From: Levilactobacillus mulengensis | Lineage (GTDB): Bacteria > Bacillota > Bacilli > Lactobacillales > Lactobacillaceae | Assembly: GCF_003946045.1 (NCBI RefSeq) | Contig: NZ_RHNW01000004.1 | Location: 1 to 64,000 of the forward strand | Length of the DNA: 64,000 nucleotides | Direction: 5' to 3' | Part shown: piece after piece, positions 21,905 through 61,283 of the stretch | Numbering within the stretch: the first letter of the stretch is position 1 | How the letters are laid out: every line of letters begins with the position of its first letter | The notes under the pieces: generated by a model | The model's database searches: none | The model's input: the letters and a program-made list of their open reading frames with translations, nothing else | What the model was told of the DNA's origin: nothing | Program-made: the position numbers and the translations under genes

Positions 21905-22662
21905 GCCTGCGTCAGCTAGGTGCTCTCGTCCCATGAGGCACGCTCGAAGCCAAAGGGCGGTCTTCGGCCTTGCGGTCAAGCCTTACTGAAACCCGTAAGT
22001 CTCGACCACAGCCCGTGGTGTAAGGCCGGCAAGAACCAGCCGACCTAACACCACCGACACGGGACTTCGCACCTAGCTGACTCCGGCTAAGAGTTGTGCA
22101 CCAACCCCAAGAAAAGCAAGGGATGATTGGTGTTTTGGCCGGATGTAGTTGTAGTTTGGTTTGACTTTAGCTAGGTGCTCTCGTCCCATGAGGCACGCCC
22201 GAAGCCTGAGAGGCGGTCTTCGGACTTGTGGTCAAGCCTTACCAAACCCGTAAGTCTTGACCACAGCCCGTGCTGTAAGGCCGAGGAAATCACTCGACCT
22301 AACAACCACCGACACGGGGTTCTGCCCTCCCCAGCTCCGGCTGAGAGTTGTGCACCAACCACAAGAAACTCAAGGGATGGTTGGTGTTTTGGTCGTGTGT
22401 GGTTGTAGGTTGACTTTAGCCAGGTGCTCTTGTCCCATGGGGCACGCCCGAAGCCTGAGAAGCGGTCTTCGGCCTTGCGGTCAAGCCTTACTGAAACCCG
22501 TAAGTCTCGACCACAGCCTGTGCTGTAAGGCCGGCAAGAACCGGCCGACCTAACACCACCGACACGGGACTTCGCACCTAGCTGACTCCGGCTAAGAGTT
22601 GTGCACCAACCGCAAAGAAACTCAAGGATGGTTGGTGTTTTGGCCGGATGTAGTTGTGTCGT
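21905..22662 (-). repeat. Tandem triplication of a structured intergenic element (type B core)
   Basis: Three direct copies start at about 21914, 22169 and 22418 (periods 255 and 249). Each contains the GAAGCC-N4-GCGGTCTTC hairpin, a TAAGGCC arm, ACCGACACGGG and a CACCAAC/GTTGGTG hairpin. Copy 1 has perfect outer arms GTCAGCTAGGTGC/GCACCTAGCTGAC. Copy 3 keeps them with one change, and copy 2 has lost the right arm. Long ORFs across the array on both strands are repeat translations, not genes. Confidence 0.8.
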
Positions 22663-22785
22663 TTGTTCAGACGGTATATCTAAATTCAGCATCGTAATCG
22701 TCAACACCTACGAATATTACTTTACATAGTATAACATTGATTTCCCACGAGGGTATCCGGGGAGCTAGGCCAATTTGCGGGCAAT

Positions 22786-22832
22786 AGAAAAGCGCCATCT
22801 ACCTCGGATAACCGAAGCAGGTGACGCTCAAA
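22786..22832 (-). terminator. Likely terminator on the minus strand
   Basis: Minus-strand AGCGTCACCT and GGTAGATGGCGCT flank TTCGG/CCGA, followed by TTTTC. It probably ends transcripts from the opuC operon after they pass the element at 22951-23144. Confidence 0.45.
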
Positions 22833-22950
22833 TTATCAAAATTTACCAACCGGCGTGACAGCCATCTAGCCAATCACACTGGCGAATGGAACCCGACCAC
22901 GGCTGCCGCCTAAGACTTCGCCAAACCAACATCGGATTGGTGTCGCAATC

Positions 22951-23144
22951 TGAGCCGGAGGAAGCCAGGACGGAGACGGCTGTGTCGGTGGTGTTAGACC
23001 GAGCGATTTTTGCTCGGCCTTACAGCACGGGACAACCTTTGAGACCTGCACGGTTCTCGCAGGGCTCAAAGTTGAGGTGGGAGCCCGCACCACAGGCGGA
23101 AACCGGCCCCACAGCAGGCGTAGTCCTGGAAGCCGCAGGCGGCC
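22951..23144 (+). repeat. Structured intergenic element, type B
   Basis: Outer arms CCAGGAC (22965-22971) and GTCCTGG (23123-23129) enclose CTGTGTCGGTGGTGTTAG, a CTTTGAG/CTCAAAG hairpin and the ACAGCAGGCG end. Flanked by CCGGAGG and CCGCAGG. It lies directly downstream of opuCD. Confidence 0.75.
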
Positions 23145-23181
23145 AGCGGTAACGCACTTGACCCAAATCCCTAAACAAATA

Positions 23182-23844
23182 TTATTGTTCAGAAGAAGTC
23201 TTAGGCGTCAGACGCTTTTCGATGAAGGAGAGGACCAGGTCCGTGATAATCGCCATCAAAGCCGTTGGCAGCGCCCCGGCCAGAATAATGGCCCCACCAT
23301 TCGTGGCGTTGGTCCCGCGGACGATGATGTCCCCGAGCCCACCGGAACCGATGAACGAGCCGATAACGGTGATCCCGATACCGATGACTAAGGCATTTCG
23401 AATCCCGGCGATGATCACCGATAGTGACAGGGGGATCCGGATGGTCATCATGACTTGTAGGCGGGTCATCCCCATGCCTTTCCCGGCGTCCAGCACGTCG
23501 GCGTCGACGCTCAGCATGCCGGTGTAGGTGTTTTTAATGATTGGCAGCAGGGAGTAGAGGAAGACGGTCACGATGACCGTGGTCTGCCCCAAGCCCAGGC
23601 CCAGCATCAAGATGGACAGCATCGCCAGTGACGGAATCGTTTGGATCACGTTGGCAATGCCAATGATGACGGGCGAGAGGCGCCGGTACTGGGAAATCCA
23701 AATGCCCAGCGGAATCCCGACGATGGCGCCCAGTAACACCCCGTAGATGGAAACGAGGAACGTTTGGTTAAATTGACTGAGGACGTACATCCCGTTGTGG
23801 CTAAAGTAGTAAACTAGCTGACTGAGTAAACCCATGTCTTTCAT
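23182..23844 (-). CDS. opuCD: Osmolyte ABC transporter permease (OpuCD-like)
   Basis: A 220-residue permease with about six membrane helices and the binding-protein-dependent inner-membrane signature around GKGMGMTRLQVMMTIRIPLS, which contacts the ATPase. This family pairs two short permeases with an OpuC-type lipoprotein for uptake of glycine betaine, carnitine or choline. The ATG at 23844 is two bases after the stop of the binding-protein gene, with GGGAGG upstream. It is the last gene of a four-gene operon. Confidence 0.9.
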   Translation of the reverse strand: MKDMGLLSQLVYYFSHNGMYVLSQFNQTFLVSIYGVLLGAIVGIPLGIWISQYRRLSPVIIGIANVIQTIPSLAMLSILMLGLGLGQTTVIVTVFLYSLLPIIKNTYTGMLSVDADVLDAGKGMGMTRLQVMMTIRIPLSLSVIIAGIRNALVIGIGITVIGSFIGSGGLGDIIVRGTNATNGGAIILAGALPTALMAIITDLVLSFIEKRLTPKTSSEQ

Positions 23845-23846
23845 AA

Positions 23847-24779
23847 CTAGTCGTTCCTCCCTTCAAAGTAGTGGTGTTCTTTCAAGAAATTGTTGGCAAC
23901 CGTCTGGGGTTCTTCCAGTTGGTCGTCGACTTGGTAGTTCAGCTGTTGCATGGTCTTCAGCGACACCTTGCCGACCAAGCGATTCAGAACGCCGCGCAGT
24001 TCCGGATGCTGTTTCAAGATGGCATCGGTGGCCACGGCGCTCCCATCATAGGGTGGGAAGAAGTTCTTGTCGTCCTTTAGCATTTTCAAATGATAGCTGG
24101 CGACCCGGCCGTCGGTGGAGTAGCCCAGAATGGCGTCCATCTTGTCGGCGGATAAGGCGTCGTAGAGCAACCCGGTCTGCATGGGCAGCACGGTACCAAA
24201 GCTATAGCCGTACATCTTCTGGAAGGCGGGGTACCCGTCGCCTTGACGGTTTTGCCAGATTTGGTCGATCCCGACTTTCATGGTTGGCGCCAGTTTCTTG
24301 AGGTCACTGACGGTCTTCAGGTGGTGTTTCTTAGCGAAGGCCGGCTTGACCATCCAGGCGTAGGTATCGGCGAAACCGTATGATTTGAAATAAGTCATCT
24401 GGTAACGTTGCTGAAATTCACGCGTGACGGTCGCTTTGACCTTGGCGGGGTCCCGCTCAAATTTTTCATTCAGAATGGTCGTCAGGTCGGTCCCGTTGAA
24501 GCGGATGGACGAGATGTCCGCCTGCTTGTTCTTCAGGGCGTTGAAGCTGACGTTGCCAGACCCCAGGTTGTTGATGATGGTGGGTTTTAAGTTGGTATAG
24601 TGATCAATCATACCTGCAATGACGTAGGCCATGATCTGCTGTTCCGTGGTGTTCTGTGACGCGATTCGTACGGTGTTATTGCCCGAGCCAGACAGTCCCG
24701 GCAGCGCGCACCCGCCCAAAGGCAGGAGGACGACCACAACTAGCAAGGCAGCGAGCCATTGACGTAAATGTTTTCGCAT
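23847..24779 (-). CDS. opuCC: Osmolyte ABC transporter substrate-binding lipoprotein (OpuCC-like)
   Basis: A 310-residue lipoprotein with a lipobox (LPLGGC, Cys about 28) after a hydrophobic signal. The mature part has the OpuAC-type periplasmic-binding fold, with NNTVRIASQNTTEQQIMAYV at the start, NLGSGNVSFNAL, GYSTDGRVASYHLKML and DQLEEPQTVANNFLKEHHYF. The likely ligand is a quaternary ammonium compound (glycine betaine, carnitine or choline). Which one cannot be told from sequence by eye. It lies between the two permease genes of the operon. Confidence 0.9.
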   Translation of the reverse strand: MRKHLRQWLAALLVVVVLLPLGGCALPGLSGSGNNTVRIASQNTTEQQIMAYVIAGMIDHYTNLKPTIINNLGSGNVSFNALKNKQADISSIRFNGTDLTTILNEKFERDPAKVKATVTREFQQRYQMTYFKSYGFADTYAWMVKPAFAKKHHLKTVSDLKKLAPTMKVGIDQIWQNRQGDGYPAFQKMYGYSFGTVLPMQTGLLYDALSADKMDAILGYSTDGRVASYHLKMLKDDKNFFPPYDGSAVATDAILKQHPELRGVLNRLVGKVSLKTMQQLNYQVDDQLEEPQTVANNFLKEHHYFEGRND

Positions 24780-24788
24780 AGCGGCCTC

Positions 24789-25415
24789 CTATCGTAATTG
24801 GCGTGGCGTGACGGCCGCTTCCACTTTACCCAACAAATAGTCGACGAGAAGCGCCAACAGGATAACGGGAATCGAGCCGCCAAGAATCAGGTCAGAGCGG
24901 TACAGGTTCAGTCCGTTGAAAATGAAATCTCCCAGACCACCGGCCCCGATGTAAGACGCCAGAGTGGCCCACGCAATCACGTAGGTCGCGGACAACCGGA
25001 TACCGGCCATGATGACCGGTGCGGCCAAGGGAATCTCAGCCTGAACCATCATTTGCCACCAGGTCATGCCCATGCCTTTGGCCGCGTCGCGCACGGTCGG
25101 GGAGACGCCTTGCATGCCCAAATAGGTGTTTCGCAAGATGGGCAGCAGGGAGTAGATGAACAGGGCCACGATGGCGGGCGTCGAGCCGATTCCGAAGAGG
25201 GGAATCATCATGGCTAACAGCGCCATGGCCGGAATCGTTTGGAGCACGCCGGCGAGGGTGATGACAAAGTTGGCGCCGTGTTTCATCCGCGTCAACAGGA
25301 TACCTAGTGGCACGGCCACGATGACCCCGAGGGCCAGGGCCGCGGCCGAAATGTACAGGTGTTGGCCGGTCTTGGCAATCAGTTGGGTCCCATAAGTTGC
25401 TAGAAAATGCATCAT
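24789..25415 (-). CDS. opuCB: Osmolyte ABC transporter permease (OpuCB-like)
   Basis: A 208-residue permease with about six helices and the EAA-type loop [22 protein letters not shown]. It overlaps the ATPase gene by four bases (ATGA), so the two are translationally coupled. It is paralogous to the permease at 23182, with which it probably forms the heterodimeric channel. Confidence 0.9.
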
Positions 25416-26620
25416 TGTGGGATTTCGCCCCCTTCATCGTGGGTCGCAGCGGCGTGAATGTCCGCGTTGATCGGTGAGGCTGGTTCTTCATTGGCTTCGG
25501 GTGCGCCACGCAGGGCATCGTAGACGATGTCGACCAGCGCCGTCCGGGTCACGATGCCGACCAGGTGTTTGTCCTTGTCGACAACGGGCACGTTTTTAAC
25601 CCCCTGTTTCAGAATCCGGTCGACGGTATCGCCAATCAGCGAGTCGGCCTTCACGAAGAAGACTTGGCGGTTGGTGAAATCACCCACGGCCGTGTGGGGG
25701 TCGGTGATCCGGTTGATGTCTTCCAGATCAACGTACCCCTGGAGCACGCCGGCGTCGTCGGTTACCAGCAGCGTATCAACTCGCCGGTCATGCATCAGGT
25801 CGATGGCGTCGTCGACGGTCTTGTCGGGCGTGATGGAAACGGGGTTCTTTAACATGATTTGACTAACGGATAAAATGTTGGGTTGGGCCCGGATCAAGCG
25901 TTCCTCACCGATTAGGTTGGTGACGAAGTCGTTGGCCGGGTGACGTAAGATGTTTTCGGGGGTGTCGACTTGGACCTGCTTGCCTTGGCTCATGATGACG
26001 ACCTTGGTGGCCAGGTGTAGCGCTTCGTCCATGTCGTGGGTCACGAAGATAAAGGTCTTGCCCAGGTCTTCTTGTAGATGCTTGACCAAATCCTGTAGCG
26101 ATTCTCGCGTGATGGGGTCCAACGCACCGAAGGGTTCATCCATTAAAATGATCTCTTGGTCGGCAGCCAGGGCCCGCACAACACCGATTCGTTGCTGCTG
26201 CCCACCGGAGAGTTCACCAGGGTAGCGTTGCAGCATGTCGTCGGGCAGTTGGGCCAGCTCAATCATCTTGTGGGCTTGTTCGGCCCGCTTTTCCTTGGAC
26301 CAGCCGAGGAGCTTGGGAACCATCTCGATGTTTTCCTGGATGGTCATGTGGGGCATCAGGCCAATGTTTTGGATAACATAGCCGATGGACCGCCGGAGCT
26401 TGACCGGGTCCATTTTAGAAATATCCTTGTCGTTGATCTTAATGGTCCCCGACGTTTGTTTCAGCATGCGGTTAATCATCCGCATGGTCGTGGTCTTCCC
26501 CGAGCCGGACGTCCCGATGAACGCGATAAATTCACCGCGGCCGACTTGCAAATTGAAGTCGTCGACGGCAATCTTGCCATTGGGATATTCCTTACGTAGA
26601 TGTTCCATTGAAAGTAGCAT
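25412..26620 (-). CDS. opuCA: Osmolyte ABC transporter ATPase with tandem CBS domains (OpuCA-like)
   Basis: A 402-residue ATPase. Walker [10 protein letters not shown] (36-44), signature [10 protein letters not shown] and Walker [13 protein letters not shown] are all intact. Two CBS domains follow (about 255-375). In this family they sense ionic strength or bind nucleotides and gate transport under osmotic stress. The start ATG 26620 follows AGGAGG. It is the first gene of the operon opuCA-CB-CC-CD. A type A element (26665-26852) sits only 45 bases upstream, so the promoter must overlap or lie beyond it. Confidence 0.92.
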
Positions 26621-26664
26621 AGATTAACCTCCTGTATGATGGTGTTGCGTATTAAATGGCACGT

Positions 26665-26852
26665 TGTCAGTGCCTCCGGGAGAATGAAAATAGGCCGTGA
26701 CGCGGTGGGCGCCCGCCTGGAGCCAAAGGGCGGTCTCCAGACTTACTTTGAGCCGCTAAGAAGCGCGTCTCAAAGATAGCAGTTACCTAAGCGGGAACCC
26801 GCTAAGGTAACTCCCACGGCTGAGCCTATTTTCATTCTCCCTGCGGCTGACA
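26665..26852 (+). repeat. Structured intergenic element, type A
   Basis: Outer arms GGGAGAATGAAAATAGGC (26678-26695) and its perfect complement (26824-26841), extended by TGTCAG/CTGACA. Inside are CTGGAGCC-AAAG-GGCGGTCTCCAG, CTTTGAG...CTCAAAG and AGTTACCTAAGCGGG/CCCGCTAAGGTAACT. Confidence 0.85.
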
Positions 26853-26973
26853 CTAGTTTAATGCGGCGACGAACGTGTCGGTGGTTAAACTAGTGTGACC
26901 GTGGTGCAGTTGTTCGTATGGGTAATATTGAACTGCAACGAGTAAGCCAGAGCTGTTGTTCTGCGGTCTAAAT

Positions 26974-27170
26974 CTGTGTTGGCCGCAGGGCGGGGGAAAA
27001 TGAGCTTAGCCGTGGGAGTTCCCTTGGTGGCTTTGCCACTTAGGGAACCGCTAGTTCGAGACTCGGTTTGTGAGGCTCAAACTAAGCACGGAGACCGCTC
27101 TCTGGCTCCGGGCGGGTGCCCACAGCGGACCGGTCTCATTTTCCCCCGCCCGGAGGCCTGGACGACACAG
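26974..27170 (-). repeat. Structured intergenic element, type A, inverted
   Basis: Outer arms GGGGGAAAATGAG (26992-27004) and CTCATTTTCCCCC (27135-27147), with CTGTGT/ACACAG further out. Inside are GTTCCCTTGGTGGC/GCCACTTAGGGAAC and GAGACCGCTCTCTGGCTCC. It is oriented opposite to the copy at 26665, so the pair forms a head-to-head arrangement in the opuC/27686 divergent interval. Confidence 0.8.
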
Positions 27171-27473
27171 TTTAGCCCGCGTACAAAAATAACGATCGGT
27201 GTGCCGGGAGCACACGTCAAGACGGGCAACCTGGAGACCGGTCGTATTCGGTTTTTTCGTTTCGCAGTTACATCTATTGTACATGAAAGAGTTACATTTA
27301 CCAAAAGATAACTATTCCTTCTGTTGATAATCTTCTAGTGTAAACGGATTCGGGATGCAACCGTATCGTTGCTGTGTCAGGCCTGTCGGGTATTTCGACA
27401 CATTAACATATTTATATGAGTTTTTGATAAGTAATTGCTTATTTATTTGCTCAGAATTTTTTGAAAATAGGGG
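27171..27473. other. Intergenic region, no gene seen
   Basis: AT-rich sequence between the second type A element and the promoter of the 27686 gene. No supported ORF lies here. Confidence 0.3.
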
Positions 27474-27504
27474 TTGCCTTCGACCTACTGTAACCCTATA
27501 TAAT
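27474..27504 (+). promoter_or_regulatory. Probable promoter of the 27686 gene
   Basis: TTGCCT (27474-27479) and TATAAT (27499-27504) with a 19-base spacer. The leader to the start codon is about 175 bases. Confidence 0.5.
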
Positions 27505-27530
27505 CATTTACATTGGGTTAGGGACACCGC

Positions 27531-27650
27531 GTGATTGGTTGATTAGAGGAGACCGATAACGGGCGCCGCTGTGGGATTTTAACCACGCCCAATCACTTGA
27601 AGACGCACATATTCGCTGGCCAGTTGATACGCTAAGAAATTGACCAGCGC
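27531..27650 (+). ncRNA. Candidate structured leader of the 27686 gene
   Basis: GTGATTGG (27531-27538) pairs with CCAATCAC (27589-27596) and encloses GGGCG/CGCCC and GTGG/CCAC. A second stem pairs CGCTGG with CCAGCG and extends through an imperfect CAGTT/AATTG. No poly-U tract follows, so it is not a simple terminator. I could not match it to a known riboswitch class. Confidence 0.35.
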
Positions 27651-27685
27651 CTCAACTGATACATGAATGAAAGGAAGTTACGACC

Positions 27686-28165
27686 TTGAAACGACTCTTA
27701 CTCGCTGGTGCCCTCGATGCTGCCAGTCAAAATTTTGTCCGTCAATTAAGCCAAAATAGTCAGTTAGACCTGACCGTTTACACCTCCAGTGCGGTGAGTT
27801 TGCCCGAATCTGTGACGGCGTTGACCGAAGAAGTGCTGGACGAGGGGGGCCTGAGCGCTGCCATGTTGGATCAGGACCTGGTCGTGGCCTTGGTGCCAAC
27901 GATTCGCTTGGCCAAAACGGCTAGCACGTTGGCAACGGCGGTCCAGGCCGCGGGCAACCCACAACTGATCATCAGTCGCACGGATGACATCGAAGAGTTG
28001 CCACTGGAGGAACGCCATGCCCGGCAAACACTAGCAGCGGCCGGTGTGGCGTTCGACATGGTCGACGGCTTCGGCGGCATCAACAGTTTACTCGGCGTTA
28101 GCACGACGTCGGCAACGGTTTTTGGGCCGGGTGAAGAGGTTCCCCTTGAACGTTTTGTCGGGTAA
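27686..28165 (+). CDS. Small NAD(P)-binding Rossmann protein (NmrA/SDR-like)
   Basis: A 159-residue protein starting at TTG 27686 with AAAGGAAG nine bases upstream. The first strand and loop (MKRLLLAGALDAASQNFVRQL) occupy the dinucleotide-binding position, although the usual GxxGxxG glycines are largely replaced. The short length and alternating beta/alpha pattern fit atypical NAD(P)-binding proteins of the NmrA type. The substrate is unknown. It has its own promoter and a long leader with inverted repeats. It is followed by a partial repeat element and a bidirectional terminator. Confidence 0.6.
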   Translation: MKRLLLAGALDAASQNFVRQLSQNSQLDLTVYTSSAVSLPESVTALTEEVLDEGGLSAAMLDQDLVVALVPTIRLAKTASTLATAVQAAGNPQLIISRTDDIEELPLEERHARQTLAAAGVAFDMVDGFGGINSLLGVSTTSATVFGPGEEVPLERFVG

Positions 28166-28195
28166 ACTGAACTGAAAATGGTGATGATGTTCGTT

Positions 28196-28325
28196 CCCGA
28201 CGGTGGCCTCAAGGTAGCCTGCTGTGGGGACCGGCTCCAGCCTGAGGGGGGCGGTCTTCCGCCTCGCTTTTGAGCCTGAAAAGCGGTCTCAAAAGTCGTC
28301 CCGTGGTCTAAACTGAGAAAATCGC
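28196..28325 (-). repeat. Structured intergenic element, type B, partial
   Basis: It retains CCTGCTGTGGGG, an AGCC-N4-GGGCGGTCTTCC hairpin and TTTTGAGCC-TGAA-AAGCGGTCTCAAAA. The run into GAGAAAATCGCTC is kept but the closing outer arm is missing. Confidence 0.65.
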
Positions 28326-28354
28326 TCAAAATTTGCTAAATTCTATTTCAATAC

Positions 28355-28401
28355 AAAAATGGACGATCCGGAAGTTTTCACTTCTAGGTCGTCCATTTTA
28401 A
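28355..28401. terminator. Bidirectional terminator between 27686 and the MFS gene
   Basis: AAAATGGACGA and TCGTCCATTTT flank an inner GGAAG/CTTC. A and T runs on both sides. Confidence 0.85.
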
Positions 28402-28412
28402 TTTGTCATCGC

Positions 28413-29642
28413 TTAAGCTGTTTTAACACGTGCCTTACGAATTTCTGGGACTAACCACCAGATTAACGCAAGGTTGACCAGCATCAACAGGGCCGTGGAG
28501 AAGAAGACCGCGTTGTAGTCGAAGACCCCGGCAATCCAGCCGCCGAAAAGCGAACCCATCATGTTGCCGATGGCTTGGAAGGATTGGTTCCAGCTGAAGA
28601 CGGTGGAGGTCAATTCGACCGGCGAGTTTTTCGTCAGGAGGGTTTGGATTTCTGGGAACAGGGCCCCGTCGGAAATCCCAATCATGAACCGTAAAATCCC
28701 GAGCATCCAGACGCTGGTGACGAATCCCTGTGGGAGGTACATGAGAAAGGCAAAGACGTAACCGAAAATCAAGACCTTACCAGAGCCGTGCTCATCCCCG
28801 TAACGCCCGAGACGTGGGGAAGCAAAGATGTTTGAAATCCCTGGTAAAGCCGCGATAATTCCGGCAACCACGGTGATTGGGCCGACGTTGTGCATTAACT
28901 CTTTCACGTACAAACTAATGATTGGTGAAATTGAAATGTTCCCGAATTGAACGATCATGGTTGAGGATAACAGAACCAGAATCAATTTGGGATTGGGGAA
29001 AGCGGCCAATGGATTGTGGCTCTTGGGCGCATCCGGTTGCTTGGTGACCGGCTTGAATTTTTCCTCAACCAGCACCCAACTCATGATGAACGTGAGGAAC
29101 AACAGGGCAGCCGTGATGAAGAAGGTCAGCCGAATCGAGAAGACCTGCGCCAGCACCCCGCCAATGACGGGGCCCAGTAGCATCCCGCTGGTTACCCCGG
29201 TCATCAGGGTGCTGAGTGAAGCCCCGCTGTGTTTCCGAGGTGTCTGCGAGGCGACCAAGGCCTGCGCGTTGGAAATAAATCCGGCGAAGACCCCTTGTAA
29301 GGCGCGTAAGGCCACTAACTGCCAAACACTGGTGGCAAATCCCATCAACGCCATGGCGCCGGCCGTCCCGAGTGAGGCCCGCATCAGCATTAATTTCCGA
29401 CCCTTGCGATCGGCGACCATGCCCCAAAGTGGGGAAGCAATCGCGCTCACGAAGAAGTCCGCGGCGTAAACCAAGCCACTATACATGGTCACCTGTGATT
29501 TGGTGTAGTCGCCTAAACTACTGATATATAACGATAAAAATGGCATGATTTCACTAAAAGCCATGCCGGCAACGAACGTACAGAACCAGAGAACCCGCAA
29601 ATTACGCCGCCATGGGCCGGATTCCCTTTCAGACTCGTCCAA
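28413..29642 (-). CDS. MFS multidrug efflux transporter (DHA1 type)
   Basis: A 409-residue protein with about 12 helices. Motif A is visible as GMVADRKGRKLMLMR between helices 2 and 3, and the antiporter motif C region as GVTSGMLLGPVIGG in helix 5. Both are typical of drug/H+ antiporters. The likely start is TTG 29642 with GGGAG ten bases upstream. It is a single-gene unit that ends in a terminator shared with the 27686 gene. The specific drug substrate cannot be inferred. Confidence 0.82.
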   Translation of the reverse strand: MDESERESGPWRRNLRVLWFCTFVAGMAFSEIMPFLSLYISSLGDYTKSQVTMYSGLVYAADFFVSAIASPLWGMVADRKGRKLMLMRASLGTAGAMALMGFATSVWQLVALRALQGVFAGFISNAQALVASQTPRKHSGASLSTLMTGVTSGMLLGPVIGGVLAQVFSIRLTFFITAALLFLTFIMSWVLVEEKFKPVTKQPDAPKSHNPLAAFPNPKLILVLLSSTMIVQFGNISISPIISLYVKELMHNVGPITVVAGIIAALPGISNIFASPRLGRYGDEHGSGKVLIFGYVFAFLMYLPQGFVTSVWMLGILRFMIGISDGALFPEIQTLLTKNSPVELTSTVFSWNQSFQAIGNMMGSLFGGWIAGVFDYNAVFFSTALLMLVNLALIWWLVPEIRKARVKTA

Positions 29643-29995
29643 AATAGTTCAACTCCCTATTGATTGAATTGATTGGTGAGATTACCCAAAGTAACGCAAA
29701 CCAATCGTGAATTATCCGTAATGGTAACTCTACTAAGATACGCCCATAGCGCCGGAACGTCAACGTTAGCGACTTGATTGTATGCGCTCGCAATTGGTTT
29801 GAAATAAAGGGTTGCGCCAATTGAAAAGTTTCGATGTGGGTCAGTTGATGTGGTTGAAAGAAAACCGGTCCTGGTTCACGCGAAGGAAAAACACGTGACT
29901 GGGGACCGGTTGGGGTTATAAGAAAATAGGATGAAGATATTAATAAGCTAGAAAAGGGTAGTGGGTTAGCACGGCAGCGCGGGGTTAAACCAGTA
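29643..29995. other. Intergenic upstream region of the MFS gene, no gene seen
   Basis: A 63-codon minus-strand frame (29629-29820) overlaps the MFS start, has no family features, and is not counted as a gene. Confidence 0.3.
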
Positions 29996-30181
29996 TGAGC
30001 CGTGAGGGGAACGCAAATAAACCCAGCCGCGGGAATTTGCTTAGTGGCGATCTTGGCCGCTTAGCAAATTGGTATCTTTGAGACGGGGCTGTCGGCTCAA
30101 AGTAAGTCTGAAGACCGCTCTTTGGCTTCAGACGTCCGCCCACCGCGTTCCGGTTTATTTGCGTTCCCCGGTAAGGCGCTG
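29996..30181 (-). repeat. Structured intergenic element, type A, inverted
   Basis: Perfect 18-bp outer arms GGGGAACGCAAATAAACC (30006-30023) and GGTTTATTTGCGTTCCCC (30152-30169). Inside are AATTTGCTTAGTGGC/GCCGCTTAGCAAATT, CTTTGAG/CTCAAAG and GAAGACCGCTCTTTGGCTTC. Ends are GCCGTGAG and CGGTAAGGC. Confidence 0.85.
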
Positions 30182-30192
30182 TTCAGACTAGT

Positions 30193-31140
30193 TTAAGCTC
30201 CGTAGTTGCCGTCCGCGATGGTTTCGAGGAGGCGGCGGGACGGGATAAAGAACGCGGCCCCCGTAATTGGCGTACTAAAGTCTAGCAGCCGGTCGCTCTG
30301 GGTAAACATGTTGGTCAACATCCGTTGGGTCACGGTAAAGTGACGGGCATAGCCGATGAAGTAAGTGCCGACGATGCCTTGGCCGGGCAGTGCGTAGGGG
30401 ACGTTCATCCGCACAATTTTGTGTTCGATGCCGCCCTCGTTGTCTTGAGAGGCAATGTTGTGGGCGTTAGGAAGTTTTTCATCGTCCTCGAGTTCACGGT
30501 CGCTAAATTTGTGCCGACCGATGGATTTTTCTTGGCCCTCGGTCTTCAGGGCGTTCCAGGCGTCCATGTTATGCTCGTATTTCTGGGCGAAGGCGTAGGA
30601 CCCGTTAATAAATTCGGGGTCTTCGTCACCAATCAACGCGTACTGGGTGGCGTCCGGGCCGGCTGGGTTCTCGGTGCCATCGATGAAGCCAATGATGGCG
30701 CGGCCTTCGAAGTAGCGGAAGCCCGGCGTCTCATCTACGACAGTCGTCCAGTCGCGTAGAAATTTGCGAGCCTGGTCCATGACTTCGTAGACCACCGCCG
30801 TGTCCTTGGCGCGGACGTGCATGAACAGGTCGCCCGGGGTAGCGGGTGCCGTGTACTTGGGACCTCTGACCTCCTGAAAGTCGACGAGTTCCTTAGGCAC
30901 GTTGGCGTTGGGGAAGAGGTCTTTCCAAGCGTTGGCACCAAAACCAAAGGCCACGCGGAGATTGGCATCGGGATAACGAATGTCCATGCTCCGTTCGATA
31001 GCGGCCAGCCGGTCGGCAAATTCGGCGATGGCTTCGCGGTCAGCCTCGAGGTGATCACGGTCGATGACGTAGGTGGTGAACATAATATTGTCACCGGCAT
31101 CACGGTAAACATCTTGGGCATCAGCTGGGTTGATTGGCAT
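30193..31140 (-). CDS. DyP-type haem peroxidase
   Basis: A 315-residue dye-decolourising peroxidase family protein. The second ATG (31140) is chosen because AAAGGAGG is nine bases upstream, whereas the first (31149) abuts that SD. The GFIDGTENP motif (151-159) with the catalytic Asp154 is present, and IEHKIVRMNVPY near residue 240 supplies a plausible proximal His and the nearby Arg. There is no signal peptide or Tat motif and no encapsulin or EfeUO gene beside it, so it is probably a cytosolic peroxide-detoxifying enzyme or a deferrochelatase-like enzyme. Haem would have to be acquired, since lactobacilli generally do not make it. A 20-bp palindrome lies upstream of its promoter. Confidence 0.9.
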   Translation of the reverse strand: MPINPADAQDVYRDAGDNIMFTTYVIDRDHLEADREAIAEFADRLAAIERSMDIRYPDANLRVAFGFGANAWKDLFPNANVPKELVDFQEVRGPKYTAPATPGDLFMHVRAKDTAVVYEVMDQARKFLRDWTTVVDETPGFRYFEGRAIIGFIDGTENPAGPDATQYALIGDEDPEFINGSYAFAQKYEHNMDAWNALKTEGQEKSIGRHKFSDRELEDDEKLPNAHNIASQDNEGGIEHKIVRMNVPYALPGQGIVGTYFIGYARHFTVTQRMLTNMFTQSDRLLDFSTPITGAAFFIPSRRLLETIADGNYGA

Positions 31141-41779: not shown

Positions 41780-41819
41780 TGTGGGGCAATCTTTAAGTTG
41801 AAGGCCGGATGATAAGCAT

Positions 41820-42094
41820 TTTACTGGAAAGCTATCATAAAAATAATTTTCCGCTAGGTTAGCGATAGCCGGAGCTGGTTAGACCTACCCCCTGTGTCGG
41901 TGGTGTTAGGCCGGTGGTTTTCCCGGCCTTACAGCACGGGACGAGCTTGGAAACTCGCGAACTTTAGCGAGGTTTCAAGTCGAGCTGGTGGACCGATTTT
42001 CAGGCCACCAGCGGTCCCCATAGGGGGTGGGTCTGACCAGCGGAGGCGGCAAGCGCCAGGACCCAAGGAAAATTATTTCCGCTTTCCAGTAAAA
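41820..42094 (+). repeat. Type B element nested in a 275-bp composite palindrome
   Basis: Outermost arms TTTTACTGGAAAGC (41820-41833) and GCTTTCCAGTAAAA (42081-42094) are perfect. The next arms, AATAATTTTCC (41843-41853) and GGAAAATTATT (42067-42077), are also perfect. Inside is a complete type B element with CTGTGTCGGTGGTGTTAG, TTGAAACC-like arms and GGTCTGACCAG, starting near 41870. The AI-2E transporter gene starts 65 bases later. Confidence 0.85.
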
Positions 42095-45636: not shown

Positions 45637-45837
45637 GCGGTGTGGTACCTCCGGCGGCCTAGATAGCTCCGCCTGTGGGGGTGACCTCTGAAGCCTGAGA
45701 AGCGGTCTTCAGAGGCGGTTGGAAGCCGTGAAAGCGCCACGTCTTCCAACCGACCTGTAGCGTAAGCCGGCAAAAGACGCCAACTAACGCTACCGACACA
45801 GGTCCGCGCCATCTAGCCGCCTCCGGTACCACACCGC
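45637..45837 (-). repeat. Structured intergenic element, type B, inverted
   Basis: Perfect outer arms GCGGTGTGGTACC (45637-45649) and GGTACCACACCGC (45825-45837). Inner arms GGCCTAGAT/ATCTAGCC, then GAAGCC-TGAG-AAGCGGTCTTC, GGTTGGAAG/CTTCCAACC and CCGACACAGG. It lies between the ABC operon and its likely terminator. Confidence 0.85.
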
Positions 45838-47744: not shown

Positions 47745-48020
47745 CGGGCTGAATCAGTGTCAGCCGCAGGTGGGTGAAAATGAAGCGACTGTGTTAGTGA
47801 CCAGAGGCGGACCAAAGTGCCCAGCTGTGTCGGTGGTCTTGGCTGAGGTGGTTTCACTCAGCCTAGCCCACGGGACGACCTTTAAGACCGGTTTTGGGGC
47901 TTAAAGTCGAGGTGGAAGCCCGTTCTTCGGCTGGAACCGACCCCCTAGCAGGGCACTTTGAGTCCGCCGGCGGGAACGACGATTGGCCACTCATTTTCAT
48001 CCACCCGGAGGCGTTAACAA
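47745..48020 (+). repeat. Type B element inside type A-like outer arms
   Basis: Outer arms GGTGGGTGAAAATGA (47769-47783) and TCATTTTCATCCACC (47991-48005) match in 14 of 15 positions. Inside is a type B core with its own arms GCGGACCAAAGTGCCC/GGGCACTTTGAGTCCGC, CTGTGTCGGTGGT and TTTAAG/CTTAAA. This is a hybrid that links the two types. Flanks are GCCGCAGG and CCGGAGG. Confidence 0.8.
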
Positions 48021-54916: not shown

Positions 54917-55104
54917 TAAGCCGTGAGGGTGGCGAAAATAATCTCAGCCGTGGGAATGTCCTTACCGGTGATTTGTGCCGGTTAGTACATTGGCGTCTTT
55001 GAGACTCGGTCTAGGAGGCTCAAAGCGAGTTCGAAGACCGCTCTATGGCTTCGGACGTCCGCCCCAGCGTTCCGGATTATTTTCGTCACCCGGTAAGGCG
55101 CTGA
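54917..55104 (-). repeat. Structured intergenic element, type A, inverted
   Basis: Outer arms GGGTGGCGAAAATAATC (54927-54943) and GATTATTTTCGTCACCC (55075-55091) match in 16 of 17 positions. Inside are AATGTCCTTACCGG/CCGGTTAGTACATT, CTTTGAG/CTCAAAG and GAAGACCGCTCTATGGCTTC. Ends are GCCGTGAG and CGGTAAGGC. It lies between convergent genes. Confidence 0.85.
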
Positions 55105-55382: not shown

Positions 55383-55472
55383 ATGAACGCTTCCTTTCAC
55401 TTGTTGAAATCAGTATACCAAGCAAAGGTTACGGCAACCACCATGTTTGATTAAGGATTGTCTGAGAATTTC

Positions 55473-56843: not shown

Positions 56844-57534
56844 CGGCGTCATCTTCCTTCAAACTGTAGCCGACACCCCGAATCGTGTGGAACAGGTTGG
56901 GGGCACCGGCGACGTCAATTTTGTTCCGGAGGTAGCCGATGTACACGTCGACCACGTTCTGTTGGCCGAGAAAGTCCACGCCCCAGACGTTGTCGAGCAG
57001 TTCGTCACGGGTGAAGACTTGACCGGGATGTTGTAGGAGAAAGAGGAGTAGATCGTACTCACGTTGGGTCAACTGAATGGTTTTGCCGGCGCGGTCGACT
57101 TGGCGCGTCTTGGTGACCAGCGTCAGGTCGCCTAAGGTATAGGTCTGGTCCAGGCCGCTTTGATGGGCCGTGCGGCGTTGGATAACCCGGATGCGGGCGA
57201 GGAGTTCTTCAATTTCAAAGGGTTTCGTGATGTAATCGTCGGCCCCGTTGTCCAGGCCGGTGACCTTGTCGCCCAGGTAATCGCGGGCGGTCATCATGAT
57301 GACGGGGAGTTCATCGTGTTTGCGAATCCGTCGTAGGACCTCCATGCCGTCCATCTTGGGCAGCATCCAGTCCAACAGAACCAGTAGTAGGTTATCTTTT
57401 TCGCGCTGGTAAGTTTCCCAGGCGGCTTCGCCATCGGCGGCGGTCAGAACGTTAAAATCTTCAAAGGTGAGTTCCTTAGCCACGTAACTGGCCAGGCCCT
57501 CTTCGTCTTCAACGAGTAAAATGGTATTTTTCAT
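56833..57534 (-). CDS. OmpR-family response regulator
   Basis: A 233-residue regulator. ATG 57534 (MKNTILLVEDEEG) is chosen because AAAGGAG lies upstream and the receiver starts there. The frame upstream to 57681 is repeat sequence. Acidic pocket Glu9-Asp10-Glu11, phosphoacceptor Asp55 (LVLLDWMLP), Lys in YITKPF and a C-terminal winged helix (about 135-230, with VFTRDELLDNVWG and VDVYIGYLRNKID). It forms a two-component system with the overlapping kinase gene. A type A element lies about 90 bases upstream. Confidence 0.93.
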   Translation of the reverse strand: MKNTILLVEDEEGLASYVAKELTFEDFNVLTAADGEAAWETYQREKDNLLLVLLDWMLPKMDGMEVLRRIRKHDELPVIMMTARDYLGDKVTGLDNGADDYITKPFEIEELLARIRVIQRRTAHQSGLDQTYTLGDLTLVTKTRQVDRAGKTIQLTQREYDLLLFLLQHPGQVFTRDELLDNVWGVDFLGQQNVVDVYIGYLRNKIDVAGAPNLFHTIRGVGYSLKEDDADEH

Positions 57535-57624
57535 TTTGTAGTGGACTCCTTTACTATCGCAGTGAGTTACGATTAGTGTAGCATGTAAACGCATTTGTTG
57601 CTGGGTAAATGGCGTGCTTGTTTG

Positions 57625-57810
57625 CGCCTTACCGGGTGACGAAAATAGGTCGGCACGCGGTGGGCGGACGCCTGAAGCCAAGGGGCGGTCTTCAGCCTTA
57701 CTTTGAGTCTCGAAAGGCGAGTCTCAAAGATACCAATTCGCTAAACGGTAAAAATCACCGTTTAGCGAATTCCCACGGCTGAACCTATTTTGCCGCCCAC
57801 ACGGCTTACA
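57625..57810 (+). repeat. Structured intergenic element, type A
   Basis: Arms AAAATAGGT (57642-57650) and ACCTATTTT (57783-57791). Inside are GAAGCC-AAGG-GGCGGTCTTC, CTTTGAG/CTCAAAG and a perfect 15-bp hairpin AATTCGCTAAACGGT/ACCGTTTAGCGAATT. The left end is GCCTTACCGGG, the right end ACGGCTTAC. It sits between the divergent response regulator and secreted-protein genes. Confidence 0.85.
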
Positions 57811-58014
57811 GGGATTTAACCAACAAAAACGGATTTGCTAGCTAATCTTTGTAGAAATACTGTTTGTACTTAAATAGATGGTCAATCGAAAATAACCGAA
57901 ACCTAAGAAATTCACAGATTAACCTTAGCGTGCCTTCAAGATTTAGCGGGTAAATGCATGGTATAACTAACACATGCTTAATAACGAACGAAAATCAATG
58001 GAGGAGTGGTTGTA

Positions 58015-58314
58015 ATGACTAAAGTAAAAGCAATGATGATGAAAGTAATGTTGGGGGCGATGACGGTAGCAACACTGCTGGGAACGTCTGCTGGTGCTTC
58101 AGCTGCGACAACGGCAACTGCCACGGCGACCGCTCCGCGTATTGAACGGACGACGATTCAATTTAACTCCCGGCCTGACACGACGGTTCAAGTGGTGAAG
58201 ATTAAGTTGCACAAACCAACGACGACCAAGCAAATTTCCAATCAGGTCCAGACGGCCGTTGATGCTAGTGCGCTCAACCTCGACCGGCAACACACAGATA
58301 GTCAGCTGAAATAA
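58015..58314 (+). CDS. Small secreted Ala/Thr-rich protein
   Basis: A 99-residue protein with SD GGAGGAG. The signal peptide is MTKVKAMMMKVMLGAMTVATLLG followed by a cleavable SAGASAA-type end. The mature part (about 66 residues) begins with an Ala/Thr repeat and continues as a polar, basic segment (TTVQVVKIKLHKPTTTKQISN). I do not recognise the family. It is divergent from the two-component system, so it may be one of its targets. That is inference from position only. Confidence 0.65.
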   Translation: MTKVKAMMMKVMLGAMTVATLLGTSAGASAATTATATATAPRIERTTIQFNSRPDTTVQVVKIKLHKPTTTKQISNQVQTAVDASALNLDRQHTDSQLK

Positions 58315-58390
58315 GCATACCGGCCGCAACTTAAAGTTAGCCAAAAAGACCAGTAGCGGCGGGACCGTTGCTGATTTTTTGGCTAGCAAT

Positions 58391-58438
58391 AAAAAAAGAC
58401 TAGTCCTAACACTCATTAACAGCTAGGGCTAGTCTTTA
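58391..58438. terminator. Bidirectional terminator
   Basis: AAAGACTAGTCCTAA and TAGGGCTAGTCTTT form the stem, with an A run before and T-rich sequence after. It serves the secreted-protein gene and the convergent NmrA-like gene. Confidence 0.75.
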
Positions 58439-58457
58439 GATGAACTTGTTTTGCCTC

Positions 58458-59099
58458 TTACTTAATCGCGTCAGCAACAGCCACATCACCGTTAACAATG
58501 GCAATGATCTGCTTAGGTTGGGGATGCTTGACGACGGCCACAACAGCAGCGGCCACGTCGCTGCGCGTGATCTTAGAAGAATCGGCGTTAGCGGGATCCA
58601 CGGAAATCTTTCCGGTTGGGTCATCGTTCGTTAATATCCCGGGACGGACAATTGTGTAATCCAGGTTAGTCCGGTGCTGGAGCCATTGGTCGGCGTAGTA
58701 TTTAGCCACGTAGTAGGGACGAATCCCAGACTTTTCCCAGAAGCTGCGGTCGTCGGTGCCCAGGGCACTCACGATGATGAACCGCTTGATGCCGGCCTTT
58801 TCCGTTGCAATCATCGACTTGATGGCCCCATCTAAATCAATATTCAGGGTCATGTCGTCCCCGGTACTGCCGCCAGAGCCAGCGGAGAAGACGACGGTGT
58901 CGACCCCGTTCATGGCGGGCACCATGGCATCTGCCGTCCCCATCAGGTCAAACATGCGGGCTTGGCCGCCCAGTTTGGTGATAGTTTCAGCCTGTTCCGC
59001 GTTCCGAATGGCCCCGTAGACGGTTTCCCCGGTTGCGGCGAGTTGTTGAACAATGTGCTGGCCAACTTGGCCGTGAGCACCAATAATTAAGGTTGTCAT
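58458..59099 (-). CDS. NmrA/SDR-type NAD(P)-binding protein
   Basis: A 213-residue atypical SDR. GAHGQVGQHI (7-16) binds the dinucleotide. Arg33 in AIRNAEQ suggests NADP. FSAGSGGSTGDD, IIVSALGTDD and YYVAKYYADQWL (YxxxK) follow, then VRPGIL. Members are often stress-induced oxidoreductases or redox sensors. The SD is AGGAGG before ATG 59099. It is a single gene. Confidence 0.82.
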   Translation of the reverse strand: MTTLIIGAHGQVGQHIVQQLAATGETVYGAIRNAEQAETITKLGGQARMFDLMGTADAMVPAMNGVDTVVFSAGSGGSTGDDMTLNIDLDGAIKSMIATEKAGIKRFIIVSALGTDDRSFWEKSGIRPYYVAKYYADQWLQHRTNLDYTIVRPGILTNDDPTGKISVDPANADSSKITRSDVAAAVVAVVKHPQPKQIIAIVNGDVAVADAIK

Positions 59100-59522
59100 G
59101 AAAATTCCTCCTATACGCAGGTTAATTTACTAACTTCCACTGTAACGGTTTTGGGGGCTAATTTCAGCTATTGTGACTCAGAATGGCGTTGGCAACGGGT
59201 GACAACCCGGGTGGAAATGGGGGAAATAACCCAAATGCTTTGACGATTTTTACGGGATAATTACCCGTGAAGACTGGTCTCACAACGATTCAATTGTGCA
59301 CGGTTGATTTGTGAAATAGATTACGATAGTTCCGAGCTGGTTTTTCACCTGATAAGCCGTATAATAGAGACAAATATCCCTGACGAGTTAGGTCACCTGC
59401 TGGTTCCAAATGGGGGGAGCAGTGAGTGTTAACTAAAATGTAACCGTTTTAGTTGGCCTGAACATTGTTAACTGACTGTACTTAGGGAGAACTTATTTAA
59501 ATAGAAAAGGGGTCGTTTAATT
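59100..59522. other. Intergenic region with the ndh promoter
   Basis: TATAAT at 59360-59365 is the best -10 box for ndh (weak -35), giving a leader of about 150 bases. The leader contains a CTGCT/AGCAG stem and an AACTAAAA/TTTTAGTT hairpin. A Rex-like half site (TTGTGAAA) lies at about 59309 upstream of the promoter. No gene is seen. Confidence 0.45.
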
Positions 59523-60734
59523 ATGGCAACGATTTTAGTTCTAGGTGGCGGGTACGCCGGTATGCGGGCCATCAAGTTCTTACAACGTGAGGTTCCCAGT
59601 GAAGACAAGATTGTTTTAGTGGATAAGACGGGGACTCATACCGAGAAAACCAATTTACATGAGGTGGCGGCCGGGACCATTGCGCCGGACCGGATTACTT
59701 ACGAGATCAACGATGTGATTGGCAGCCGGGTCGAATTTATTCGCGATACGGTCACTAACGTGGATGTCGATCAGAAACAAGTCACGTTGACGGAACACGA
59801 ACCATTGACCTACGATTACCTGGTCTTGGCGCTAGGGTTCCAGTCCGAAACGTTCGGCTTAAAGGGCGCCGCGGAAAATGCCTTACCAATGGATGACTTG
59901 GAAACGTCTGAAGCCGTTTACCAACACATCGAGGCCAAGGCCAAGCATTATGCTGAAACGCAGGACCCAAACGACTTATCAATCGCCGTTTGTGGGGCCG
60001 GGTTTACCGGGATCGAATTGCTGGGTGAACTGAGCCAGTCCCTGCCAAAGCTCCAGACGCGCTACAACACGCCAGCCTTTAAGGTGACCTGTCTAGAAAT
60101 GGGCAAGAGCATTTTGCCAATGTTTGACAAGTCCCTGGCCGACTACGCGCTGGCCTTCATGGACAAACACAACATTGAAATGAAACTGGGCGCCGCCATT
60201 ACCGAAATCAAGCCGGGCGCAGTGGTTTACCAGGATAAGAATACGGACGATGAAACGCCACACGAAGTCGCTGCCAACACGATTGTTTGGACCGTGGGGG
60301 TCAGTGGTTCGCAAGTCATTGCCGACTCTGGCTTTGAACAACGGCGGAACCGGGTCGTGGTGAAGGATGATTTGACCTTGGACGGCCACCCCGAAGTTTA
60401 CATCATTGGGGATGTCTCCGCGGTCATGGATCCAGCCAGCAACCGGCCTTACCCAACGACGGCGCAAATTGCTTTGGCCTGCGGGTCACACGCGGCCAAG
60501 AACATTGGATTAGCGCTGCGGGGTCATGAAACGCGGCCATTCGTCTACAAGTCTAGTGGGACCGTGGCCTCACTGAGCGACCGCGATGGAATCGGTGAAA
60601 TCTTCAGCAGTAACAAGAAGATTCACGGCTACATCGCCTCAGCTATGAAGAAGATCATTACCGACCGTTCCTTAATGGAAAGTGCCCACTTGAGTACCAC
60701 CTTAGCTAAGGGCCGATTCGATCTTTACCACTAA
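59523..60734 (+). CDS. ndh: Type II NADH dehydrogenase (NDH-2)
   Basis: A 403-residue flavoprotein. GGGYAGMRA (8-16) binds FAD, GAGFTGIELLGEL (about 158-170) binds NADH, and IIGDVSA (about 297-303) with PTTAQIA completes the FAD and quinone-site region. The C-terminal amphipathic end fits peripheral membrane attachment. It would oxidise NADH and reduce menaquinone or another quinone without proton pumping. In lactobacilli this supports facultative respiration when haem and quinone are supplied. The SD is AAAAGGGG before ATG 59523. Confidence 0.9.
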   Translation: MATILVLGGGYAGMRAIKFLQREVPSEDKIVLVDKTGTHTEKTNLHEVAAGTIAPDRITYEINDVIGSRVEFIRDTVTNVDVDQKQVTLTEHEPLTYDYLVLALGFQSETFGLKGAAENALPMDDLETSEAVYQHIEAKAKHYAETQDPNDLSIAVCGAGFTGIELLGELSQSLPKLQTRYNTPAFKVTCLEMGKSILPMFDKSLADYALAFMDKHNIEMKLGAAITEIKPGAVVYQDKNTDDETPHEVAANTIVWTVGVSGSQVIADSGFEQRRNRVVVKDDLTLDGHPEVYIIGDVSAVMDPASNRPYPTTAQIALACGSHAAKNIGLALRGHETRPFVYKSSGTVASLSDRDGIGEIFSSNKKIHGYIASAMKKIITDRSLMESAHLSTTLAKGRFDLYH

Positions 60735-60754
60735 ACCGTTACATGGTCGTTGTC

Positions 60755-60938
60755 CGGGGGCCTTACCGGGCAGTGAAAATAGGCCGTGACGCTGTGGGCG
60801 GCCGCCGGAAGCCATAGAGCGGTCTTCCAGCTTAGGTTGAGCCGAAAAGCGCGTCTCAAAGATACCAGTTGTCTAAGCGGTAAACCGCTAAGACAACTCC
60901 CACGGCTGAGCCTATTTTCACTGCCCTCACGGCTAACA
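60755..60938 (+). repeat. Structured intergenic element, type A
   Basis: Perfect 17-bp outer arms GGGCAGTGAAAATAGGC (60769-60785) and its complement (60910-60926). Inside are GGAAGCC-ATAG-AGCGGTCTTCC, TTGAG/CTCAA and AGTTGTCTAAGCGGT/ACCGCTAAGACAACT. Ends are GCCTTACCGGG and CCCTCACGGC. It starts about 20 bases after ndh. Confidence 0.9.
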
Positions 60939-61105
60939 TGGATGAGATCAGTCACGATTTGTGGGCTAATTAAAGAGCTTATCAGAGGTGTAGATATTTC
61001 CTGGAAATCAGGTGATGTCTACGCCTTTTTGTGTTGCGCTGGGGTGATGCAAGTGGACAGAGAGGACGTTTGTCTCAGTCTCTGATGGCATGGACGGATA
61101 ATTTT

Positions 61106-61283
61106 AGCCGGAGGAGGCCAGGACGGAGCCAGCTGTGTCGGCGGTGTTGGTCGGGGTTCCCGGCCTACAGCGCGGGGCGAGCTTTGAGACACGGGCCTTG
61201 TGGCTCAAAGTCGAGGTGGAAGCCCGTCCCTCAGGCTGGAACCGACCCCATAGCAGGCGGAGCTCCTGGCAGCCGCAGGCGAC
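61106..61283 (+). repeat. Structured intergenic element, type B
   Basis: Arms GCCAGGA (61117-61123) and TCCTGGC (61264-61270). Inside are CTGTGTCGGCGGTGTTGG, GGTCGGG/CCCGGCC, CTTTGAG...CTCAAAG and GGCTGGAACCGACCCCATAG. Ends are CCGGAGG and CCGCAGG. Confidence 0.8.

What the first reader, a model, noticed from the sequence alone, without database searches (positions are those of the whole stretch)
21905..61283. Undescribed family of multi-hairpin intergenic elements, at least 17 copies in about 40 kb
Seen: elements at 21905-22662 (three), 22951, 26665, 26974, 28196, 29996, 41820, 45637, 47745, 51625, 51900, 54917, 57625, 60755 and 61106. Each has an outer inverted repeat, up to three inner hairpins, and ends of the form CCGGAGG or CCTTACCGGG with CCGCAGG or CACGGC. 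A hairpin with AGCC-N4-RGCGGTCT in its loop recurs in both types. They occur in both orientations and only between genes. I know of no named repeat (REP, BIME, ERIC, RUP, IRU) with this layout, but I could not search. They may be non-autonomous mobile elements, structural RNAs made as 3' or 5' extensions, or sites for a nucleoid or recombination protein.
Basis: partly seen in the sequence, partly recalled or inferred. Interest (0 to 1): 0.85.

Follow-up and report, generated by a model that had tools for sequence, protein, structure and literature searches.

The report
Folded-end mobile repeats in lactobacilli
Between the genes of this lactobacillus lie hundreds of copies of a short, intricately folding DNA repeat that turn out to be the paired inner ends of a small jumping element without a transposase of its own, and its fold has been kept by matching changes on both sides of its stems, which elements of this kind are not known to need.

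Summary
A covariance model finds all 17 window elements (E <= 2.1e-11), 125 copies in a 596-kb sample of the genome (about 650 by extrapolation), and relatives in 104 of 397 Lactobacillaceae genomes, 11 of 40 genera. Rfam has no match. The fold is a four-way junction; 26 of 36 pairs show two-sided compensatory change.

What it is: close neighbours in opposite directions are nearly always divergent (-+ 60, +- 1), and 3' ends face the nearer gene (100 of 116 own, 89 of 98 in relatives). A pair with its spacer is one insertion: clean empty sites for 5 of 17 pairs examined. In a congener, G003, the whole unit is about 620 bp, has 14-bp terminal inverted repeats and, in 5 of 9 units with both ends, an 8-bp target duplication (4 exact; shifted control 0). 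So it is a MITE-like non-autonomous transposon with structured subterminal domains.

Not found: the transposase, and unit ends in the window's own genome. Whether the fold acts as RNA or DNA is open; the strand test was inconclusive.

The parts
21927..22065 (-). element core, subtype C, tandem copy 1
   Evidence: R1 103.7 bits, E 6.3e-31; strand = H1-H2-H3 reading direction
22182..22320 (-). element core, subtype C, tandem copy 2
   Evidence: R1 105.6 bits
22431..22570 (-). element core, subtype C, tandem copy 3; left member of a divergent pair with 22977
   Evidence: R1 112.5 bits; pair list
22977..23118 (+). element core, subtype A, right member of the pair
   Evidence: R1 141.3 bits
26647..27184 (.). 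inserted unit: element(-), spacer, element(+); 538 nt where relative G033 has 28 nt
26699..26822 (-). element core, subtype B
   Evidence: R1 55.4 bits, E 1.1e-15
27007..27129 (+). element core, subtype B
   Evidence: R1 41.7 bits, E 2.1e-11
28218..28324 (-). element core, truncated (no hairpin 1)
   Evidence: R1 63.2 bits; terminator hairpin 28356-28399 on its 5' side
30024..30149 (+). element core, subtype B
   Evidence: R1 52.7 bits; core deleted in G012
41889..42027 (+). element core, subtype C-like, with outer arms 41819-41852 and 42067-42094
   Evidence: R1 129.9 bits; arms; fold z -12.9
45669..45804 (-). element core with perfect-like outer arms 45637-45658 / 45816-45837
   Evidence: R1 102.7 bits; arms
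47822..47952 (+). element core, subtype A', inside an outer stem that holds a subtype B core at the same site in G012 and G021
   Evidence: R1 127.7 bits
51653..51780 (-). element core, subtype A'
   Evidence: R1 129.5 bits
51931..52081 (-). element core, subtype A', hairpin 1 missing
   Evidence: R1 65.3 bits; alignment
54945..55071 (+). element core, subtype B
   Evidence: R1 50.4 bits
57654..57781 (-). element core, subtype B
   Evidence: R1 61.9 bits; mostly deleted in G012
60736..61306 (.). inserted unit: element(-), spacer with its own terminator, element(+); 571 nt absent in G020, about 600 nt absent in G033 and G003
60788..60908 (-). element core, subtype B
   Evidence: R1 44.3 bits
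61130..61257 (+). element core, subtype A
   Evidence: R1 131.9 bits

Best explanation
The elements are the structured subterminal domains of a MITE-like, non-autonomous DNA transposon of Lactobacillaceae. A full unit of roughly 0.4-0.75 kb runs: short terminal inverted repeat, element read leftwards, spacer, element read rightwards, short terminal inverted repeat. The elements' 3' ends point outwards and their 5' ends face the spacer. A transposase acting in trans is expected to recognise the ends, insert the unit into AT-rich intergenic DNA and duplicate 8 bp of target. Units then decay by internal deletion and exchange cores with other copies, which leaves single elements that still point outwards. 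The four-way-junction fold of each element is kept by compensatory change. Shown: family, fold, orientation rule, empty sites, and (in the congener G003) terminal repeats and 8-bp duplications. Inferred: that the window's own units use the same mechanism, the kind of transposase, and any role of the fold. My guess for that role is that the fold is used when the strand is single, either by the mobility machinery or in transcripts leaving the unit.
For: Orientation: close neighbours (under 700 bp) are -+ 60, -- 15, ++ 7, +- 1 (own sample alone 21, 11, 6, 0), and 3' ends face the nearer gene in 100 of 116 own copies and 89 of 98 in four relatives, also in divergent regions without an expected terminator (16 of 20). 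Insertion as one unit: of 17 -+ pairs examined, 5 (four loci) have a relative with a clean empty site of 32 nt or less; two G003 pairs are absent in five relatives each. Ends: five G003 copies align pairwise over 592-632 nt at 85-89%. Nine G003 units have both terminal repeats within 3 mismatches; 5 carry an 8-bp duplication (TTAAATAA, TTAAACAA, TAAAATAA, TGAGTTGA exact; CTGTCTTA/CTATCTTA one mismatch), 0 of 9 at a position shifted by 20 nt. Of these five units, three hold two elements and two hold one, so single elements can be real units. No stop-free run over 114 codons in five 650-nt windows. Internal-deletion forms share the same ends. Fold: 26 of 36 pairs with two-sided change on a MAFFT alignment; on a wider, model-fitted alignment 96.7% of cells paired against 76.0% shuffled and at most 50.9% slid. 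Copy number differs sharply among congeners: G022 none, G016 and G031 two each, while most reach the cap.
Against: Terminal repeats and target duplications were found only in G003; the 14-mer end is present exactly in 6 of 35 genus genomes and not in the window's own genome, and no duplication could be read at the window's two empty-site loci. 4 of the 9 G003 units show no duplication within one mismatch. No transposase with these ends was found: in G003 no +/- pair of ends lies 0.8-6 kb apart (ends within 2 mismatches only). Comparison with sister species at 91-94% identity gave deletions and core exchanges but no fresh insertion. A deeply conserved multi-branched fold is not expected of an ordinary MITE.
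Confidence: 0.78

Rival explanations
1. REP/REPIN-like elements moved as single-stranded hairpins by a Y1 tyrosine transposase (RAYT or TIRYT type).
For: Opposite-direction neighbours, intergenic position and conserved mismatches in the palindrome resemble REPs (passages of PMC3733652); several 5' feet read GTAG, GTCAG or GTTAG.
Against: Y1 transposase (PF01797) does not track the elements: G012, rich in elements, has none; G022, without elements, has one; 12 of 35 genus genomes have none. The five own Y1 genes are copies of one IS605-type element. An 8-bp target duplication is not made by Y1 transposases (recalled).
Confidence: 0.07
2. Structural RNA or transcript-boundary device: the elements are kept because the folded RNA protects each gene from transcripts entering from the intergenic side, and mobility is incidental or past.
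For: Strong two-sided covariation; at shared loci in sister species 33 of 52 changed pairs stay paired, 21 of them by double change; the H1-H2-H3 strand folds better in all four subtype alignments; any transcript leaving a unit reads the last element in that direction (follows).
Against: Strand test inconclusive: on pairs common to both strands' structures G-U against A-C is 14:6, 14:12, 13:6, 5:12 in subtypes A, A', B, C and 20:17 on A1; only the model-fitted A2 gives 74:27. Double changes cluster in a few loci and could be core copying between elements. Density per kb is alike in tandem, convergent and divergent gaps. No expression data.
Confidence: 0.1
3. Orientation-specific insertion next to transcription terminators, each element by itself.
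For: A predicted terminator lies only on the 5' side of 71 of 116 copies, only on the 3' side of 10, on both sides of 21, none found for 14.
Against: The rule also holds in divergent gaps (16 of 20); the spacer's terminator at 60788-61130 is absent together with the pair in G020, G033 and G003, whose own terminator lies outside the block; distances from terminator to core are spread from 31 to 861 nt.
Confidence: 0.04
4. Spread by a reverse transcriptase (retro-element or group II intron relative).
For: Structured, RNA-like repeat.
Against: No RVT_1 (PF00078) match in the own genome.
Confidence: 0.01

Closest known systems
MITEs (Correia elements, Chunjie, QMITEs and others)
   Same: Short, no transposase gene, terminal inverted repeats, target duplication, many intergenic copies, internal-deletion derivatives (passages of PMC10969869; own).
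   Different: Two inverted copies of a roughly 140-nt four-way-junction domain inside the ends, with compensatory change in most pairs; no parent transposon found.
BOX, RUP and SPRITE repeats of Streptococcus pneumoniae
   Same: Intergenic, modular, predicted to fold as RNA, thought to be non-autonomous mobile elements, clustered (passages of PMC3049150).
   Different: Different sequence and layout; BOX is a boxA-boxB(n)-boxC array, here the unit is an inverted pair of the same domain. Copy number here about 650 by extrapolation.
REP / REPIN (GTAG and CGTC palindromes with RAYTs)
   Same: High copy, neighbours in opposite orientation, palindromes with conserved mismatches (passages of PMC3733652).
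   Different: Units are 20-40 bp there; no co-occurring Y1 transposase here; an 8-bp target duplication here.
bcr repeats of the Bacillus cereus group
   Same: Repeated intergenic elements with predicted RNA structure (search listing only; details recalled).
   Different: Other genus and sequence; not compared by sequence here.

Membership tests
MITE | Short, without a transposase gene | tested here: met
   G003 units 390-749 nt; longest stop-free run 114 codons in five 650-nt windows; no domain search was run on these frames.
MITE | Terminal inverted repeats | tested here: met
   CTAAAGGTTGCAAG at both ends: 0 mismatches in two units, 1-2 in three further ones with duplications. Met in G003 only; not established in the window's genome (exact 14-mer absent).
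MITE | Target site duplication | tested here: met
   8 bp in 5 of 9 G003 units with both ends, control 0 of 9. Ten further loci matched on the minus strand were not turned round in the script and so were not tested.
MITE | Empty sites in relatives | tested here: met
   5 of 17 pairs (four loci) with 32 nt or less left.
MITE | Parent transposon with the same ends | tested here: inconclusive
   None in G003 within 0.8-6 kb spacing at up to 2 mismatches; not searched in other genomes or as degenerate ends.
REP/RAYT | Co-occurring Y1 tyrosine transposase | tested here: not met
REP/RAYT | 20-40-bp palindrome with GTAG tag at one end | tested here: not met
   Core about 125-142 nt; 5' feet vary: GTAG in some relatives, GTCAG/GTTAG/GAGCC in others.
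Rfam families (4227) | Score at or above gathering threshold | tested here: not met
   0 matches in the window; 5 sub-threshold chance hits in 21850-30250.
RT-mobilised element | Reverse transcriptase in the genome | tested here: not met
   PF00078: 0 in G000.
BOX | boxA-boxB-boxC array | not tested
   No BOX sequence was compared; only passages on BOX were read.
ISfinder / MITE collections | Sequence match to an entry | not testable with these tools
   No such library is on hand. No match in phage or plasmid records by blastn (subtype A query only).

The most novel reading that the evidence does not exclude
The paired four-way-junction domains are selected functional structures, not by-products: a small transposon that carries at each end an outward-reading RNA (or single-stranded DNA) device which insulates the neighbouring gene from transcription running out of the element, or which is itself the form recognised for movement. 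That would be a MITE whose success rests on nucleic-acid structure.
Probability: 0.2. Interest if true: 0.85.

Novelty: new variant of a known kind. Interest (0 to 1): 0.6.

Why it matters
At about 650 extrapolated copies this family would make up roughly 4% of the genome (taking 200 nt each) and sits at the borders of a large share of its genes, in 11 genera of food and gut bacteria, yet no Rfam model covers it and six literature searches found no description. It shapes intergenic regions, supplies terminators, and confuses annotation and assembly. The strict divergent order gives a simple way to recognise units, and the conserved fold poses a testable question: why does a DNA transposon without genes preserve a four-way junction by compensatory change?

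Tried and rejected
Strand argument: I first took G-U over A-C counts (68:6, 41:14, 31:6, 26:12 in the H1-H2-H3 direction; 171:49 on A2) as proof of an RNA strand. The opposite strand's own best structure shows a similar excess of its own wobble in three of four groups (58:15, 53:16, 14:7; 6:13 for B), and on pairs common to both strands the counts are 14:6, 14:12, 13:6, 5:12, 20:17 (A1) and 74:27 (A2, fitted to the model).

Other ideas dropped: single elements inserting beside terminators; REP/RAYT; retro-mobility; plasmid or phage carriage (one query each); replication-strand bias (B-like copies lag 32, lead 15; others 42:36), too weak to use. Locus-specific arms beyond the element pair better than mismatched arms out to about 75 nt from the core (p 7e-6 at 45-75 nt, 0.006 at 60-90, 0.06 at 75-105, none further); I read this as outer unit ends and did not resolve it. 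Ortholog test: 33 changed pairs kept and 19 broken in 16 comparisons, which share rows and include tandem copies that are not one-to-one. The orientation counts in relatives include orthologous loci counted apart (for example L169 and L268 are one place; L046 is from the window's own genome).

Papers: search listings; passages only of PMC2267715, PMC3049150, PMC3733652, PMC10969869. No paper was read whole. 'Not described' rests.
Full report
OBSERVATION. The window is G000:C31:1-64000 of a 3.11-Mb genome in 36 contigs. Rfam gives nothing at gathering scores over the window and only unrelated weak hits in 21850-30250.

ANATOMY. Each core (about 125-142 nt) is the inner part of an outer stem P1 plus three hairpins. 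RNAalifold on the 51-copy MAFFT alignment gives 36 pairs, 26 with two-sided kept changes. On 148 distinct matches from many genomes 32 of 36 pairs have two-sided change, 96.7% of cells are paired, shuffles give 76.0% and slid partners at most 50.9%; that alignment is fitted to the model. Subtypes A, A', B and C differ in outer stem and hairpins.

ABUNDANCE AND RANGE. In one search, 33 of 34 other genus members, 4 of 24 genomes of other genera in the family and 0 of 39 genomes of other families in the order match. In a wider draw 104 of 397 family genomes in 11 of 40 genera match at E <= 1e-6 (few candidates were scored per genome). Named records with the pattern are mostly Levilactobacillus, with Secundilactobacillus, Furfurilactobacillus and Lactiplantibacillus (a capped list that also holds unrelated chance hits); R1 confirms the elements in the records of these four genera that I scanned. 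By equal contig lengths G012 is L. wangkuiensis, G021 L. lanxiensis and G020 L. cerevisiae (inference).

ORIENTATION. Copies sit in tandem, convergent and divergent gaps (72, 21, 20 of 125; 8 at stretch ends, 4 overlapping ORF calls), in proportion to gap space, and in tandem gaps 33 run with and 39 against the genes. Yet neighbours within 700 bp are -+ 21, -- 11, ++ 6, +- 0 in the own sample and -+ 39, -- 4, ++ 1, +- 1 in other loci. The 3' end faces the nearer gene in 100 of 116 own copies with a gene on both sides, in 16 of 20 in divergent gaps, and in 89 of 98 copies in G012, G020, G033 and G003. Where it faces a gene end, the stop codon mostly follows the core by 40-80 nt. A predicted terminator lies only on the 5' side in 71 of 116 and only on the 3' side in 10.

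UNIT. For 17 -+ pairs I compared syntenic stretches. Five (four loci) have relatives with 32 nt or less in place of 538-665 nt: G003 447498-447923 (absent in G000, G012, G021, G020, G033), G003 475720-476104 (absent in G000, G012, G021, G020, G027), G000 60788-61257 (absent in G020, G033, G003; G027 has 270 nt), and the 26699 pair of G000 and its G020 counterpart (absent in G033). The remaining pairs had longer DNA in the relatives or no anchors. At 60788 the spacer's terminator is missing together with the pair, while another terminator remains outside. So pair plus spacer behaves as one insertion.

ENDS. In G003 a 96-nt tail beyond the element recurs 34 times in whole or part. Five dispersed copies align pairwise over 592-632 nt at 85-89%, from CTAAAGGTTGCAAG to CTTGCAACCTTTAG. 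The 15-mer ACTAAAGGTTGCAAG occurs 58 times within 2 mismatches, against 7 for the reversed control. Of the loci tested, nine have a partner end within 3 mismatches and five of these carry an 8-bp duplication, four exact; at a position shifted by 20 nt, none of nine. Ten of the 27 loci in that script lay on the minus strand and were not turned, so they were not tested. Units with duplications hold two elements (L337, L344, L349) or one (L351, L353), and single-element units are internal-deletion or recombined forms with the same ends. The exact 14-mer end occurs in 6 of 35 genus genomes and not in G000, so ends differ between species or have decayed.

DYNAMICS. Between G000 and its sisters (91-94% identity) I saw deletions inside elements, a tandem array of 3, 2 and 1 copies at 21905, and sites where the outer stem is kept but the core is of another subtype (47745, 70935, 83808). 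At 47745 both G012 and G021 have B, so A' is the newer state in the window. No fresh insertion was seen in these comparisons.

MECHANISM. Best reading: a MITE-like transposon whose ends point outwards, moved in trans by an enzyme that duplicates 8 bp. The orientation rule then needs no further cause. The enzyme was not found: no reverse transcriptase, Y1 transposases do not track the elements, and no longer unit with the same ends appears in G003. What the fold does is open. The H1-H2-H3 strand gives lower alignment energies in all four groups, but the wobble test on shared pairs is inconclusive, so RNA, single-stranded DNA or a cruciform are all possible.

NOVELTY. MITEs and structured intergenic repeats are known kinds; this family, with paired four-way-junction domains and family-wide covariation, is in neither Rfam nor the papers that six searches returned. 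I rate it a new variant of a known kind.

Noticed in passing
G000 outside the window: C1:109602, C34:97085, C1:42643, C3:73244, C23:35650: Five copies of one IS605-type element with a Y1 transposase; one locus shows a 440-aa frame beside it that looks like TnpB (not searched against a family).
   Followed up: partly
window 28166-28391: Three relatives (G012, G021, G020) have about 2.9 kb here; in G012 it holds a TetR-like and a 643-aa flavin-oxidoreductase-like frame (by eye). The window has 225 nt with a truncated element, which suggests gene loss at the element.
   Followed up: partly
window 11506-11736: 229 nt present in G000 and G012 but missing in G021, with 14 nt shared at the junction, inside an ORF: a likely in-frame repeat loss.
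   Followed up: no
G033 stretch near its counterpart of window 29996; L087:6058-6228; L315 after 1595: A second, different hairpin repeat (motif around TTGCTAACC...GGTTAGCA with GCGGAACTGGTGGC-like flanks) recurs in intergenic regions of this genus; not characterised.
   Followed up: no
L236:4654-6104 (G003): The only +- neighbour pair within 700 bp lies between two -+ units in G003.
   Followed up: no
window 27190-27260: Conserved hairpin-rich stretch upstream of the 25412-26620 gene, shared with G033 and G020, that looks like a leader with an attenuator on the minus strand; Rfam gave no match.
   Followed up: no
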